Program-made: the position numbers and the translations under genes | Notes under the pieces: generated by a model | What the model saw: only the letters and a program-made list of their open reading frames with translations | The model's database searches: none | What the model was told of the DNA's origin: nothing | DNA from: Candidatus Poseidoniaceae archaeon | GTDB lineage: Archaea; Thermoplasmatota; Poseidoniia; Poseidoniales; Poseidoniaceae | DNA length: 36,678 bases | Reading direction: 5' to 3' | Assembly: GCA_030747785.1 (NCBI GenBank) | Contig: JASLKC010000053.1 | Location: forward strand, 1 to 36,678 | Shown here: positions 3 through 31,214 of the stretch, one piece after another | How the letters are laid out: the number at the start of each line of letters is the position of its first letter | Numbering within the stretch: the stretch's first letter is position 1

Positions 3-1550
3 ATAGAGGATAAATCATGTGGTCTGGAGGAAGACGTACCTTGTAACATCCATAAGGCCGGATTAGGAAATGATATGTGGAGCCTTGACAATGATTTGCG
101 CTTTGATACACAATCGGGGCACATTCTCGCAATTGAATTACGCGATGGTACAAATCACTACAATCCAGAATTTGATGAGACCTTAATCGGTGCTGGTCAG
201 GCCCTTCGATTCAGTGGTAGAGTTTTGTTTGCAGAGGATGAGTCTCCAGCGCCACCAGGCTCATTCAATATCGAACTTGGAGATTATGAAAATGAATGGA
301 TTACCACTAGCCGCGATGGTGGATTTTTCACTATTGATTTACTGGTTCCAGATGTTAGAAGCGGGCATCTTGATTTGCGAGCATCACTCACAGAACTGCC
401 CGGTCTTTCTACAGATGAATCACCATTCAAGCCGCGACTCCGTCTTGCAGTTGATGGCGAGCAACCTACTATTCATGCCGTGACATTAGATGGAATCGAG
501 CCGGGTGGTGAAATACCAATTTCGCGTGCTGGTGAACTTCAAGTAATGCTTGAAACAAGAGACGACAATGGATTCGACATTGACAATCCTGCCGTACTTC
601 ACTATCTTGTAAGAGCCGGTGAGGCTGAAATTAGCAGGGGGACTGCGCCTCTCCCAGATACAACACCATTCGAGGACCAATTCTTCTGGACCGGTAATAT
701 CGATTTGACCGATGGTGGTGCAACACAATTGCTACCATCTTACACAATTGATGTATGGGTTACTGGCTCAGATGCTTCAGGAAATCCATATGATAGCAAT
801 TCAAACCAACTGGAGGAACCACTTGCATCTTGGCCACTTGCGCTTACTGGGCCTGATGTTAGTCTCCGTGCAGCTGATACCACATGGACATGGTCGGATC
901 CATCTCCACACCCTGGTGATTCTGTGCAATTGGTGATTCAAGCGCGCAATGCTGGCTCAACTGGCGAAATGACCTTCTTGTTACAAAAGAAGGTAGAGGG
1001 AGATTATTGGGCAGAAGCAAGTAGTAGAACCGTCGAGATGAGTAGTGGAAAAAATATCCAAATTTCACTACAGATAATCGCTGATGGGCTCGGTGGAGAT
1101 ACACTTGAGTATCGCCTACTTCTCTTGGATTCGGGTGTTGAAAAGGAGAGAATTTCCATCTCGCCACTCCTTGTAAAAGATGAAGTGGAACGAGACGGTG
1201 AAGCATTAGCAGGGCAAGTTACTGATTCTGCACTTGCTGTTGTAATGTATCTTATCGCCCTTGTTGCAATGTCATATGCGGTTTGGACAATGATTCAAAT
1301 TAGAAGGATTCGTAGAGGCGATGAGGAAATCGAAGGTGATCAGACCGCTGAAGTGATTGAGAATATGCTGGATGGCAAAACTGTCCCAACCGTTCCGGGG
1401 GCACCTACTCTACCAACTGCTGTTCAGCACGGAGCACCTACACAGCTAGCACCTCCATTGCCGCCAACTGGTCTGCCAGAAGGATGGACAGAACAACAAT
1501 GGCAACATTATGGCCACCAATATGTGGCTTCAATGGGTTCAAACGATTGA
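3..1550 (+). CDS. Membrane-anchored surface protein, 5' partial, with QWQHYGHQ tail
   Basis: The reading frame is open to the left edge of the window: codons from position 3 run without a stop into the first in-window ATG at 75. The gene therefore starts outside and its N-terminus (probably a signal peptide) is not seen. The visible 515 residues are a beta-rich ectodomain with repeated Ig-like/CARDB-like character. One transmembrane segment follows about 82-108 residues from the end, then a basic stop-transfer stretch (RRIRRG), so the C-terminus is cytoplasmic. The tail has a Pro/Ala/Thr-rich linker and ends in PPLPPTGLPEGW and QWQHYGHQ. The subtilase ending at 31214 has nearly the same end. 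No enzymatic motif is visible. A surface-binding or structural role is inference. Confidence 0.8.
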   Translation: MEDKSCGLEEDVPCNIHKAGLGNDMWSLDNDLRFDTQSGHILAIELRDGTNHYNPEFDETLIGAGQALRFSGRVLFAEDESPAPPGSFNIELGDYENEWITTSRDGGFFTIDLLVPDVRSGHLDLRASLTELPGLSTDESPFKPRLRLAVDGEQPTIHAVTLDGIEPGGEIPISRAGELQVMLETRDDNGFDIDNPAVLHYLVRAGEAEISRGTAPLPDTTPFEDQFFWTGNIDLTDGGATQLLPSYTIDVWVTGSDASGNPYDSNSNQLEEPLASWPLALTGPDVSLRAADTTWTWSDPSPHPGDSVQLVIQARNAGSTGEMTFLLQKKVEGDYWAEASSRTVEMSSGKNIQISLQIIADGLGGDTLEYRLLLLDSGVEKERISISPLLVKDEVERDGEALAGQVTDSALAVVMYLIALVAMSYAVWTMIQIRRIRRGDEEIEGDQTAEVIENMLDGKTVPTVPGAPTLPTAVQHGAPTQLAPPLPPTGLPEGWTEQQWQHYGHQYVASMGSND

Positions 1551-26417: not shown

Positions 26418-29400
26418 ATGCATGCTACTCGTCGAGCAATGGTCCTACTCTTGGTCCTACTCGCATCACCCTTGGTGAGTTTGGCTCCGACGGGTAGTGC
26501 TGCCTCACCAGACTCACTCGAACTCGCTGCAGCAAATTGGCATGTAATCGATGATGTCGAAATGAGTACATCTGCCCTGAAGTCAGTCGATTTCCGTATA
26601 CATCTCGCAATTGGTTCATTCGACCCACTGAGCGAAGAACCACCATGGTCCGGAATTAAGGATGATTTTGATTATCGACAAACCGGTATGGCAATCGTTC
26701 AGTTGAATCATCATACTGGAGAGGCATTGTACGACCTCGTAGATGAGCATGGAGTATTCGTTCTCGACCACATGGGTGGATCAGCATGGCTGGTTAGACT
26801 CTCTCATCCCGATGACCTTGTGGCAATTCAACATGATGAGACTGTTCGATGGGCAGGTATCATGCAACCGGGATGGCGTCTTTCTCCTAATTTGAATACC
26901 AATACCGCTCTGATTGCTGCAATCCCAGCGGCCGACCTCATTCCTGAGGCATTGGAAGGACTTGCACATGACCTTGTGTTGATGGGGGCAGAGGAAGCTT
27001 GGTGCGGCCTACATCTGTGTGAAATAACAGGAACAATAGACCATTCCCTACTTGCTAGAGATGGCAGAATTATCTTCAGTGAGCCAACTTATTCGCTACG
27101 TTTGACCAATGCAATGGCAGGCGCAGTTGTTGGTGTAGATGCAGTGACAAATAATGCATCCTTTACCCTCGATGGTTCTGGAGAAACTATCTCCTTCACC
27201 GATACTGGATTAGATTCAGACCACCCTGATATCGTGGGACGAGTCGCTGCAACTTACACCCAATTCGGCCTTGACCCAAGTCCTGCCGATACCAATGGTG
27301 GACATGGAACTCATGTCGCCATTACTCTAGTTGGAGATGGTAGTGGAGATGGATCTGCAAAAGGAATAGCGCCTGCTGCTAACATAATCGCTTATGCATT
27401 AGAGCATGACCCAACCGGTGTTTTCGGTAGATTGGGAAGTATTTACGACATGCTCAGGCATGCAGAACAAGAAGGTTCACGAGTATCAGTTAATGCGTGG
27501 GGACTCAATGGTAATTGGGGAAAATATACTGCTGATTCACGCTCACTCGATGTATTTGTGAGAGATAATCCCGAGTTCTTACCGATTTTCTCTGCTGGTG
27601 ATGATGTGCATCAGGACCCATCGAAGATAATGGCTCCATCTACTGCGAAGAATGTACTTTCAGTTGGTGCGACAACTAATTCGGGAACAATGGCAAATTT
27701 CTCGGCCCAAGGTCCATCGATGGATGGAAGAGTCAAGCCTGATATCGTTGCACCTGGCGTTGGTATTTGCTCTGGACAAGCAGAGGAAGCAACTGCTCCA
27801 ATGGGCTGGTCCTGCGCAAGTGGAACCCACTCAAATGGAAATCCAATGTACATGACCCTAGATGGATCTAGTCAGGCAACTGCAGTAGTTGGCGGAACGG
27901 TATCCCTCACAAGAGAATACATCCGTGAACAAGTTGGTATTTCTTCTCCATCAGCCGCACTTCTCAAAGCTACTGTAATCAATGGTGCTATCGATTTGGG
28001 CGCTCCAGATATTCCTAACTCTGCTGAAGGATGGGGTCAAATCAACCTTGAGCGAACCATTCTACCGATGGATGGAAACACACATCTTCAGACATTTGTT
28101 GATGATGCTAGAGTACTAAATGCTGGTTATTCCACAGTTTATTCATTTGAGTTAGATGCCTCACATGGCATCGATTTGACCTTGGCCTGGACCGATGTTG
28201 CGGGTAGCGCAAATGATAATCAGAATAATTCACGTCTCGTAAATGACCTCGACCTCTTGCTGATTTCACCCGATGGTACGGTATACAAGGGCAATGTGAT
28301 TTTCAATGGTGAATCAGTTCCAAATGGCGTCTCTGATTCTATCAATAATGTCGAAAGGATTCGTATTGCACCAGGGTCCGTTGTAACAAGCGGACAATGG
28401 CAGGTCAAGGTAGAGCACACCGGTGGCTTAGAGCAAGCGTTCGGACTAGTCCTTACCGCAAAGGCAAACCCCATTCCATCTACTGATTTGATAGTCTTCG
28501 ATGGCTCGATTTACGCCTCTTCAGAGTCACCATTACTCAATGATTTAATCACTCTGCGTATCTCATGGTTCAATCAAGGTACACTACCTGCTGGGTCATT
28601 CAGAGTAACACTTGAGGACCTTACCTCAGGTGATACACTATACGATTCTACAAGAACTGGCCTCGCCGACGGAATCATCGATTCAGTTACGATTTATCAT
28701 CAGTTCAATACTACGGGCATACACGATATGCGATTGAGCATCGATGTTGATGATGATGTCGTTGAAATCAATGATGCGACCAATGGAACTGACAATAATA
28801 TACTCAACATGCAAATGGAAGTAAAAGCGCTGGGCGTCCGACTTGTCCCGCTAGATTTGTCAGGAGCCGTCGATAATAATCGCATCAACCAAACTCTAGA
28901 CCCTCGGAATGGAGTTGGGATGACTTGGCCAATATTACTGAGGCACGAAGGAACCGGTACCGAATCGGTCAAACTCACAATTTCCCAAGTGCAGATTCCT
29001 CATCCAGTAAGAGATGATTTCCTCTTACCTCCGGAGGATAATTGGAGTAAATCTTCAGACCTTTCTGGTCCTTTCACCCTTTCACCAATGGGAGGAGGAG
29101 GAGACCAAATCCACCTCAATATCACCATGACTGATGATGATGCAGATAATTCGGGAAATATCCCTCGATATGCCGAAGCGGGGGTATTCTTGGTTGACGT
29201 AACTGCGCGCTATGAATTTGATCAAAGCGTTTCACACACAATTCGCCTCCAATTAACCGTGATGGAAGTGAAGGATGTTATGGTTGCACCAGCGGGAACG
29301 GATGGTCTTGAAGCTGCCCCTGGTAGTAGTACAGCATTTTCAATATCAGTGATGAATACCGGCAACTCCCCTGCAATTTACGATTTGGACTGTTATAGTG

Positions 29401-31214
29401 AAAACCGGTGGCAAGTCCAACTTGGTCAATCAAATTCCAGTTCATTTTCATTCGAGCCATTAGATATTCTAGAATATCTTCCAATGCAGGTTCGACTCTA
29501 TGTTCCACCTGTAGTCGATGGACTACCTGCAGCGGGTAGTCAAGATTCCATTTCTTGTTCGGTTACCAGTGTTCAAGACCCGGAATTGAATATTACTGAA
29601 GTAGTGATTTTGACAGTGAAGGCACTCCAGTCATTTAATACCGAGTTATTCGATCACGAGGGGCTTGAAATCGGGCCCTCTGCTCTTGCACGAGATATCG
29701 CTGTAGACACCTCTGAGCGCGTTAATCTTACACTGGGAATTGAGAATACGGGAAATACTGCACTCAATCTCTCAATGCGTGTTTCACCCGAGTTAACCAC
29801 TTGGACAATTGGTGTAACACATGGCGATGAATCGGATTCACGTGAAGTTAGTTTCTCAATACAGCCTGGAGGCTCTACAACCGTAGTAATTGCTGTATTG
29901 ATCTCTCCGACTGCATCGATGGGAGATACCAATAGATTGGTATTCAAAACAAGTGTAAATCAAGCGATTTTCTTGAATAATGAAACGACCCTTGTGGTGA
30001 AAGATGAATTATCTATCGAACTAGATGCTAGTAACTCTGACACCTTCCCAGTAATGGTTGATGGGGAATGGAATTATTTTGAATTCACAATTGAAAATAC
30101 TGGAAATGCCCTAGTGACATTATCGTGGGATCACAGTATTGCGCCCGATGGTTGGCAGGTTGGTTTCGCAAATCCAACGTCAATTATGAATCCACGCGAT
30201 ATAGAAACTATACGAATCGGTGTGATTCCTCCAGCAGGAGAAGCCGTAGGTATTTCGGAATTTGAACTTGGGATATTTGTAGATGCCACAAATGGTTTCG
30301 AAACAATTTCTGAGGACATTCGTATTACAATCGAAATTCAAGAAACCACATATGCAGTTATTGCCCCTCTAGATGATACTGAAAGGCCCTTGCTCTCTAT
30401 CGCACGCGATGGAAGTGCAACTCAAAACCTAACTATTACCAATGATGGAAATAGTATCCTTGATGCCACGCTCGTTGCATCGGTGATTAATGAGGAAGGT
30501 GAAGAAGTGAAAGATTGGGAAGTCTCCCTTTCCAAGACTAGTTTTGAAAATATTGCGATTGGAGGAGTAACTCAATTCACAGTTACTGCTACACCAAATG
30601 ATGATACTGAAACTGGAATTGTGACTATCAGAATTATTGCAACAACTGCAGATACAAATTCGAGCCTTGATCTAGAAACCTCGGTAGAATCCCGCCGTTC
30701 ACAAGGCGGTCTATTCGGCATCATGCCAGTTTGGGCAGCGAGTCTTGTGATATTCGCAGTTATCGCTGCTGGTGCTATTGTAGCTATCAGAATCAAGCGC
30801 TCGGCACCAAAGAATTACGATGGTGAAGAGTTGGTTGCACCCGATGCACATTCGATGCCAGATGATGGCGACAGACTTGATGCAATGATGGATTTAGTTT
30901 CAAAAACAAGTATTGCAAGTGGTGCAGTATCTGCAGAGGAGATTGCTGATGCCCTCGCGGGATCAATTCCGCAACTTCCTCCTCCTCCAGCCGTGGTCCC
31001 TGATGGTAGACCACCACGACTAGAAACACCAACAGGGCGACCGCCTGCTGCAATTCCGGCCGGTCGTCCGACAGTTACTCCAGCAGTAGTTCCAGTGCCA
31101 ATTGCAGTACCCGCAGGTCCACCACTTCCACCAACTGGATTACCTCCTGGTTGGTCAATGGAGCAATGGCAACATTATGGTCACCAGTGGCTTATTCAAC
31201 AAGGCCAACAGTGA
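26418..31214 (+). CDS. Giant membrane-anchored subtilisin-like serine protease with QWQHYGHQ tail
   Basis: This 1598-residue protein has a signal peptide (AMVLLLVLLASPLVSLAPTGSA) and an S8 subtilase domain with an intact triad: Asp262 (SFTDTGLDSDHPDI), His296 (GGHGTHVA) and Ser485 (LDGSSQATAV). A pre-catalytic region of about 240 residues may act as a propeptide. Behind the protease come a jelly-roll P-like domain (DLTLAWTDVAG, NDLDLLLISPDG), a CARDB-like domain (LRISWFNQGTLPAGSFRVTL) and several NEW3-like repeats (MNTGNSPAIYDLD, ENTGNTALNLSMR, ENTGNALVTLSWD, TNDGNSILDATL). One TM (about residues 1437-1458, VWAASLVIFAVIAAGAIVAI) is followed by RIKRS, a Pro-rich linker and the terminal PPLPPTGLPPGW...QWQHYGHQ module. 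It probably digests protein at the cell surface, as expected of a heterotroph living on marine protein. Confidence 0.93.
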   Translation: MHATRRAMVLLLVLLASPLVSLAPTGSAASPDSLELAAANWHVIDDVEMSTSALKSVDFRIHLAIGSFDPLSEEPPWSGIKDDFDYRQTGMAIVQLNHHTGEALYDLVDEHGVFVLDHMGGSAWLVRLSHPDDLVAIQHDETVRWAGIMQPGWRLSPNLNTNTALIAAIPAADLIPEALEGLAHDLVLMGAEEAWCGLHLCEITGTIDHSLLARDGRIIFSEPTYSLRLTNAMAGAVVGVDAVTNNASFTLDGSGETISFTDTGLDSDHPDIVGRVAATYTQFGLDPSPADTNGGHGTHVAITLVGDGSGDGSAKGIAPAANIIAYALEHDPTGVFGRLGSIYDMLRHAEQEGSRVSVNAWGLNGNWGKYTADSRSLDVFVRDNPEFLPIFSAGDDVHQDPSKIMAPSTAKNVLSVGATTNSGTMANFSAQGPSMDGRVKPDIVAPGVGICSGQAEEATAPMGWSCASGTHSNGNPMYMTLDGSSQATAVVGGTVSLTREYIREQVGISSPSAALLKATVINGAIDLGAPDIPNSAEGWGQINLERTILPMDGNTHLQTFVDDARVLNAGYSTVYSFELDASHGIDLTLAWTDVAGSANDNQNNSRLVNDLDLLLISPDGTVYKGNVIFNGESVPNGVSDSINNVERIRIAPGSVVTSGQWQVKVEHTGGLEQAFGLVLTAKANPIPSTDLIVFDGSIYASSESPLLNDLITLRISWFNQGTLPAGSFRVTLEDLTSGDTLYDSTRTGLADGIIDSVTIYHQFNTTGIHDMRLSIDVDDDVVEINDATNGTDNNILNMQMEVKALGVRLVPLDLSGAVDNNRINQTLDPRNGVGMTWPILLRHEGTGTESVKLTISQVQIPHPVRDDFLLPPEDNWSKSSDLSGPFTLSPMGGGGDQIHLNITMTDDDADNSGNIPRYAEAGVFLVDVTARYEFDQSVSHTIRLQLTVMEVKDVMVAPAGTDGLEAAPGSSTAFSISVMNTGNSPAIYDLDCYSENRWQVQLGQSNSSSFSFEPLDILEYLPMQVRLYVPPVVDGLPAAGSQDSISCSVTSVQDPELNITEVVILTVKALQSFNTELFDHEGLEIGPSALARDIAVDTSERVNLTLGIENTGNTALNLSMRVSPELTTWTIGVTHGDESDSREVSFSIQPGGSTTVVIAVLISPTASMGDTNRLVFKTSVNQAIFLNNETTLVVKDELSIELDASNSDTFPVMVDGEWNYFEFTIENTGNALVTLSWDHSIAPDGWQVGFANPTSIMNPRDIETIRIGVIPPAGEAVGISEFELGIFVDATNGFETISEDIRITIEIQETTYAVIAPLDDTERPLLSIARDGSATQNLTITNDGNSILDATLVASVINEEGEEVKDWEVSLSKTSFENIAIGGVTQFTVTATPNDDTETGIVTIRIIATTADTNSSLDLETSVESRRSQGGLFGIMPVWAASLVIFAVIAAGAIVAIRIKRSAPKNYDGEELVAPDAHSMPDDGDRLDAMMDLVSKTSIASGAVSAEEIADALAGSIPQLPPPPAVVPDGRPPRLETPTGRPPAAIPAGRPTVTPAVVPVPIAVPAGPPLPPTGLPPGWSMEQWQHYGHQWLIQQGQQ

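What the first reader, a model, noticed from the sequence alone, without database searches (positions are those of the whole stretch)
31120..31211. Shared cytoplasmic C-terminal module GLPxGWxxxQWQHYGHQ on two unrelated surface proteins
The giant subtilase and the surface protein at the left edge have unrelated ectodomains and lie about 26 kb apart. Yet both end with one TM, a basic stop-transfer, a Pro-rich linker and nearly the same final 30 residues: PPLPPTGLPxGW, three variable residues, then QWQHYGHQ and a short end. By eye about 20 of 31 positions are identical. Because the module follows the anchor it should face the cytoplasm. Sequence conserved better than the ectodomain implies a common partner. 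I infer a docking, sorting or quality-control tag that collects surface proteins of this lineage, and I know of no described archaeal sorting signal of this form.
Basis: partly seen in the sequence, partly recalled or inferred. Interest (0 to 1): 0.85.

Follow-up and report, generated by a model that had tools for sequence, protein, structure and literature searches.

The report
Shared cytoplasmic tail of archaeal surface proteins
About ten unrelated kinds of surface protein in the abundant marine archaea Poseidoniales end, inside the cell, with almost the same 25-residue tail, which probably lets one unknown inner partner hold or position them all.

Summary
The two tails are identical at 20 of 32 aligned positions. 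The window's genome holds eight copies, and every genome searched of its order (Poseidoniales, Marine Group II) has copies: 4-13 in Poseidoniaceae, 1-7 in Thalassarchaeaceae. The sister family of the class (21 genomes; one weak hit in a 25-residue frame) and other Thermoplasmatota have none. Consensus: PPLPxxGLPxGW[TS]MEQWxHYGxQWL. It sits on about ten ectodomain families (subtilase, PKD, thrombospondin type 3, CARDB and others), 20-160 residues after the one transmembrane helix of signal-peptide proteins, so it faces the cytoplasm. It is as alike between families (73%) as within them (70-81%), whereas ectodomains are 37-48% identical; codons at invariant residues vary freely. No Pfam, NCBIfam, PDB, plasmid, viral or literature match was found. 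It is not a sortase-type signal (motif-TM-basic): here the order is TM-linker-motif. Homologous ectodomains can lack it or bear other order-specific tail modules, so tails are exchangeable. Best explanation: a docking module for a common cytoplasmic partner. The partner is unidentified and function is untested; self-association and a quality-control tag remain open.

The parts
26418..31214 (+). Tagged surface protein 1: signal peptide, subtilase (Peptidase_S8, residues 253-540), CARDB and other beta-sandwich domains, one TM, cytoplasmic tail
   Evidence: Peptidase_S8 E=1.2e-37, CARDB E=2.2e-11
30732..30788 (+). Single transmembrane segment of the subtilase (WAASLVIFAVIAAGAIVAI), followed by RIKRS
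   Evidence: hydropathy scan
30789..31115 (+). Cytoplasmic linker, including the family-specific motif IASGAVSAEEIADALAGSI and a Pro-rich stretch
31116..31202 (+). GW module, copy 1 (GPPLPPTGLPPGWSMEQWQHYGHQWLIQQ); three residues then stop
   Evidence: profile E=1.3e-16
3..1550 (+). Tagged surface protein 2 (C-terminal 515 residues; cut by the window edge), family CL7, no Pfam match to the ectodomain; orthologue in G011 is 1812 aa, 56% identical over 408 residues
1227..1283 (+). Single transmembrane segment of protein 2, followed by basic residues (RRIRRG)
1449..1535 (+). GW module, copy 2 (APPLPPTGLPEGWTEQQWQHYGHQYVASM)
   Evidence: profile E=2.1e-17

Best explanation
The 25-residue module PPLPxxGLPxGW[TS]MEQWxHYGxQWL is a cytoplasmic docking domain carried on the tails of a fixed set of single-pass surface proteins in Poseidoniales. 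Shown: one module family, under protein-level constraint common to about ten ectodomain families, placed after the only C-terminal TM of signal-peptide proteins, present in every Poseidoniales genome searched, independent of the ectodomain to which it is attached. Inferred: the Pro-rich part and the Trp/Tyr helix pack as a small polyproline-turn-helix unit whose remaining conserved face is bound by one cytoplasmic partner that anchors, clusters or positions these proteases, adhesins and stalk proteins. The partner is unknown. My estimate is 0.97 that this is a real shared module and about 0.55 that it works by docking to a separate common partner.
For: Eight copies in the own genome, bimodal scores. 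58/58 family, 60/60 order and 82/82 Poseidoniales genomes in the phylum draw. Ten ectodomain families by BLAST clustering. Module identity between families 0.73, within 0.70-0.81, ectodomain 0.37-0.48, linker 0.24-0.53: one constraint acts on all copies. Nine invariant columns in 76 copies; helix positions 19, 23 and 27 vary while 17, 18, 20-22 and 24-26 are conserved, more conserved surface than folding alone would need. Many synonymous codons are used at invariant Pro, Gly and Leu, so it is neither a DNA element nor a recent copy. In 204 collected copies a TM lies 20-160 residues upstream, and charge is higher on the tail side in 172. AF2 with 47 rows: mean pLDDT 80, PPLP..GW region about 86-90, helix 34-49 of 51. 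Homologous ectodomains occur without it or with another tail module, and a second tail motif (ANSMYGG) sits on different ectodomains in the two taxonomic families, so tails are exchangeable units.
Against: No partner has been identified. The AF2 pTM is only 0.47, no PDB fold match was found, and a longer tail model was poor (mean pLDDT 58), so a defined fold is not established. Topology rests on hydropathy and signal peptides, not on experiment. Conservation between families would also result from self-association.
Confidence: 0.55

Rival explanations
1. The module is a self-association domain: Trp-rich tails bind each other and cluster the tagged surface proteins into patches, without a separate adaptor.
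For: The pattern is shared by all copies whatever the ectodomain. It contains three conserved aromatic positions (W18, Y21, W/Y25) and an invariant helix Gly. Several tagged proteins per genome would give a many-to-many network. It needs no partner, and none was found.
Against: Polar positions Q17, E16 and Q24 are as conserved as the hydrophobic ones, which a simple aromatic zipper would not need. A genome such as G072 carries a single tagged protein, so only homotypic contacts would remain there.
Confidence: 0.22
2. It is a biogenesis or turnover signal: a tail read out by the insertion, quality-control or proteolysis machinery to confirm that a large exported protein is complete, or to mark it for retrieval.
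For: It sits near the C-terminus of often very large secreted proteins (about 370-2170 aa), which would report completeness of synthesis.
Against: 35 of 204 copies have more than 20 residues after the module, up to 97, so a free C-terminus is not read. Only 10 of about 86 single-pass surface-like proteins with cytoplasmic tails in the complete genome G011 have it. Close homologues exist without it.
Confidence: 0.13
3. It is a C-terminal sorting signal of the LPXTG/PEP-CTERM/PGF-CTERM kind, processed by a transpeptidase or protease.
For: Many unrelated exported proteins of one genome share only their C-terminal region, the same many-to-one pattern as those systems (PMC3237569).
Against: The defining order motif-TM-basic end is not met: here it is TM, linker, then the motif on the cytoplasmic side. 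No NCBIfam CTERM model matched tails or whole proteins.
Confidence: 0.03
4. The similarity reflects shared ancestry or gene conversion of the tail without present function.
For: All copies are one family of sequence; an ancestral tail could have been duplicated onto several genes.
Against: Ectodomains and linkers have diverged to 24-53% while the module stays at 70-81% over the whole order, with synonymous positions freely varied. That is purifying selection, not recent conversion.
Confidence: 0.03

Closest known systems
LPXTG / PEP-CTERM / PGF-CTERM / GlyGly-CTERM C-terminal sorting domains
   Same: Many otherwise unrelated exported proteins per genome share only a short C-terminal module; presence is a property of a lineage
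   Different: Those have the signature motif on the outer side, then the TM, then a few basic residues, and are processed there. Here the module follows the TM and a 20-160 residue linker, inside the cell. No member matched an NCBIfam CTERM model
SHOCT domain (PF09851)
   Same: About 30-residue domain near C-termini of many unrelated proteins, helical, function unknown (PMC3581485)
   Different: SHOCT is two helices and widespread over bacteria and archaea; no SHOCT match in 66 members at E<=1. The present module is Pro-rich plus one helix and was seen only in Poseidoniales
Polyproline-turn-helix miniproteins (pancreatic polypeptide fold, Trp-cage)
   Same: Pro-rich segment followed by a turn and an aromatic-faced helix of about 14 residues (own knowledge; AF2 model)
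   Different: No sequence or Foldseek match; packing of the Pro segment on the helix could not be read from the model
Cytoplasmic-tail docking motifs of eukaryotic membrane proteins (e.g. integrin or cadherin tails; own knowledge)
   Same: Would work alike if the best explanation holds: short cytosolic tail, common adaptor, diverse ectodomains
   Different: No homology; no adaptor known

Membership tests
Sortase-type C-terminal sorting domain (LPXTG, PEP-CTERM, PGF-CTERM, GlyGly-CTERM) | Order signature motif, TM helix, short basic end | tested here: not met
   Motif lies 20-160 residues after the TM in 204 copies
Sortase-type C-terminal sorting domain (LPXTG, PEP-CTERM, PGF-CTERM, GlyGly-CTERM) | Match to a curated CTERM model | tested here: not met
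   No NCBIfam match of 66 tails at E<=1 and no CTERM-domain match of 10 whole proteins at E<=0.01 (the MtsC hits there cover thrombospondin repeats)
Sortase-type C-terminal sorting domain (LPXTG, PEP-CTERM, PGF-CTERM, GlyGly-CTERM) | Paired processing enzyme with the same species distribution | not tested
   The tag is universal in the order, so profiling within it is uninformative; no proteome-wide comparison was made
SHOCT domain | Pfam profile match | tested here: not met
SHOCT domain | Two short helices | tested here: not met
   AF2 model shows one helix, residues 34-49 of 51; moderate confidence
PP-fold / Trp-cage miniprotein | Polyproline segment packed on an aromatic helix | tested here: inconclusive
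   Ordered coil plus helix in AF2, pTM 0.47, coordinates not readable, no Foldseek hit
WW domain | Three-stranded sheet with two spaced Trp; profile match | tested here: not met
   Only a chance PDB match to an Itch WW domain over LPxGW, E=1.1; the model is a helix

The most novel reading that the evidence does not exclude
Poseidoniales use a cytoplasmic 'tail code': several order-specific short modules (the GW module, the LIAQGY..YAQQY module, ANSMYGG and perhaps WW-like ends) are exchangeable address labels on single-pass surface proteins, each read by its own cytoplasmic partner, an inside-out way for an archaeon to organise its surface.
Probability: 0.33. Interest if true: 0.85.

Novelty: new variant of a known kind. 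Interest (0 to 1): 0.66.

Why it matters
Poseidoniales are among the most abundant archaea of the surface ocean and are thought to degrade protein there, yet to my knowledge none is in culture and how they hold their proteases and adhesins is unknown. A short, highly conserved bait present on all these proteins makes the inner side of that surface experimentally reachable: one peptide pull-down could name the organiser. It would also be, as far as I could find, the first described shared cytoplasmic tail module for archaeal surface proteins, with a topology opposite to the sortase-type signals.

Tried and rejected
Partner finding by co-occurrence: not possible inside the order because every genome has the tag; the sister family that lacks it differs in too many other genes. 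Virus or mobile-element origin: no relative in viral contigs or plasmids. Bacterial occurrence: one 'Deltaproteobacteria' single-cell contig (L235) carries it, but that contig has the archaeal aIF5B-MoxR-ParA order of Poseidoniales G011 (54, 85 and 65% identity), so it is a contaminant or mislabelled. Weak hits in the sister family lie in frames of 25-35 aa or are partial matches. Foldseek against PDB gave nothing. AF2 of the tail with motif ANSMYGG was unreliable. One alignment row was not recognised as locus sequence by the structure tool (cause not established), so a smaller alignment without it was used. A WW-domain identity for the Trp-rich ends of other surface proteins was considered; no Pfam match. 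Literature searches for the motif and for Poseidoniales surface sorting gave nothing relevant; the library holds open-licence papers only.

Full report
Observation. The subtilase ORF (26418-31214) and the ORF cut by the left edge (3-1550) end with the same module; 20 of 32 aligned positions are identical. Each has one transmembrane segment, basic residues after it and a Pro-rich linker. Only the subtilase matches Pfam (Peptidase_S8 E=1.2e-37, CARDB), so the ectodomains are unrelated, and they fall in separate clusters.

Copies in the genome. The tail as query finds eight loci in the window's own 1.83 Mb assembly. A profile of the eight gives E between 1e-18 and 1e-15, and the next hit is 5.4. 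In the one-contig relative G011 (2.06 Mb, fetched whole) the same profile finds ten proteins at E<1e-12 and then a gap to 0.007. That borderline protein, o1641, is itself a surface protein with a divergent PEGW..QW tail.

Distribution. All 58 genomes of the family draw, 60 of 60 of the order draw and all 82 Poseidoniales genomes of the phylum draw have it; none of the other 211 genomes of the phylum draw does. The sister family of the class (f3, which I take to be Marine Group III) has one weak hit in 21 genomes, in a frame of 25 residues. The best 80 hits among 84,980 named species are Poseidoniales (many titled only 'Euryarchaeota archaeon'), apart from one contig labelled Deltaproteobacteria whose gene order is that of Poseidoniales. 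Contig lengths link f1 to Poseidoniaceae (G047 contig of 618,868 bases is that of L206) and f2 to Thalassarchaeaceae (G077 contig of 13,697 bases is that of L195). Copy number is 4-13 in f1 and 1-7 in f2.

Carriers. Collected copies cluster into ten ectodomain families: CARDB-type, a tandem PKD pair, a ~1150-aa family without Pfam match, subtilase, thrombospondin type 3/propeller, an unnamed one, arylsulfotransferase-like, the left-edge protein's family, a choice-of-anchor V-like one and a giant one (names; several are weak matches). Counts include orthologues from different genomes. In 204 copies a TM lies 20-160 residues upstream, net charge is higher on the tail side in 172, and 169 end within 20 residues of the module. 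No copy was found on a protein without a TM, other than fragments cut by contig ends.

Constraint. Within families the ectodomain (300 residues before the TM) is on average 37-48% identical, the linker 24-53% and the module 70-81%; between families the module is 73% identical. So copies on unrelated proteins are held to one standard. Invariant Pro, Gly and Leu use many synonymous codons among the eight copies of the own genome: selection is on protein and is old. In 76 copies P5, G8, L9, P10, G12, W13, Q17, W18 and G22 never vary; positions 19, 23 and 27, one face of the helix, vary freely.

Exchangeability. In G011 four other subtilase relatives lack the module. Thrombospondin-stalk homologues of family CL4 have other ends, and an orthologue of the arylsulfotransferase-like family, 60% identical in its ectodomain, has none. 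A second tail motif, LPxxDxVANSMYGG(A/S)xxIFxQP, occurs once in nearly every Poseidoniales genome of a 98-genome class draw (76 of 77 have it; two copies in the own genome) and in none of 21 sister genomes. It lies about 30-100 residues before the GW module, on the ~1150-aa family in Poseidoniaceae but on the CARDB family in most Thalassarchaeaceae. In genus g12 the CARDB protein keeps a variant of that motif and has no GW module. A third tail module, LIAQGYPxxxARTYAQQY, is also in 29 of 29 Poseidoniales genomes and 0 of 21 sister genomes. These facts make tails modular units apart from their ectodomains.

Structure. AF2 on 51 residues with 47 rows gives mean pLDDT 80, an ordered PPLPxxGLPxGW coil (blocks of 86-90) and one helix 34-49; Foldseek finds nothing in the PDB. 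A longer tail with the ANSMYGG motif was poorly predicted. A polyproline-turn-helix unit is a reasonable guess, not a result.

Mechanism. Shown: a shared, selected, cytoplasm-facing module (by predicted topology) on a defined subset of surface proteins (10 of about 86 candidate proteins in G011). Inferred: a common cytoplasmic partner binds it. More of the helix surface is conserved than packing alone would need, polar residues included, and the same sequence is kept on proteins that share nothing else. I put 0.55 on docking to a separate partner, 0.22 on self-association, 0.13 on a biogenesis or turnover signal.

Known systems. Sortase-type signals share the many-proteins-one-module logic but have the motif outside, before the TM (PMC3237569); that defining order is not met here and no such model matched. 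SHOCT is a short C-terminal domain of similar size (PMC3581485), but its profile does not match. No paper found names the motif, and no Pfam, NCBIfam, PDB, plasmid or viral relative was found.

Noticed in passing
own genome G000:C20:23170-23238 (in L003) and C3:11110-11178 (in L177); L157, L167, L172 and others: Second cytoplasmic motif LPxxDxVANSMYGG(A/S)xxIFxQP, nearly always one per Poseidoniales genome (two in the own genome), carried by different ectodomain families in Poseidoniaceae and Thalassarchaeaceae, always N-terminal of the GW module where both occur.
   Followed up: yes
L330-L333 (genus g12): CARDB-family surface proteins keep a variant of motif two (ANSALGG) but have no GW module; their tail ends shortly after it.
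   Followed up: partly
G011:C1 129174-129257 (-), 598612-598836 (+), 983182-983265 (+): Another order-specific cytoplasmic tail module, LIAQGYPxxxARTYAQQY, 1-4 hits per Poseidoniales genome, none in 21 sister-family genomes; weak sub-threshold resemblance to UBA (PF00627, E=0.0014).
   Followed up: partly
G011 ORFs at 90102, 294120, 555824, 952972, 1139432, 17701 and others: Several surface proteins end in Trp-rich, WW- or DUF2510-like stretches (e.g. WTDGSGYTWRAMDDGNTYWWTGTEWQKYA) without Pfam match. Whether they are a further tail module, or could bind the PPLP segment, is open.
   Followed up: partly
G011 ORFs o0305, o1548, o1458 and L006, L039, L041: Another recurrent end, SFLDDLL / LLDDLDL, on tails; in the downstream PKD gene of the tandem pair it follows the GW module after a Pro/Gln-rich stretch.
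   Followed up: no
L235 (JAOMAZ010000035.1): Contig of a single-cell genome labelled Deltaproteobacteria is Poseidoniales DNA (aIF5B-MoxR-ParA and tagged protein as in G011): contamination or mislabelling.
   Followed up: yes
L173:561-7526: Two tagged PKD-repeat proteins lie in tandem in the own genome and in G011, about 34% identical to each other: an old duplication with the tag kept on both.
   Followed up: no
window 30912-30968: The subtilase tail has a further conserved stretch SGxVSxxEIxxALAxS between TM and Pro-rich linker in most orthologues, resembling by eye the second half of a SHOCT domain.
   Followed up: no
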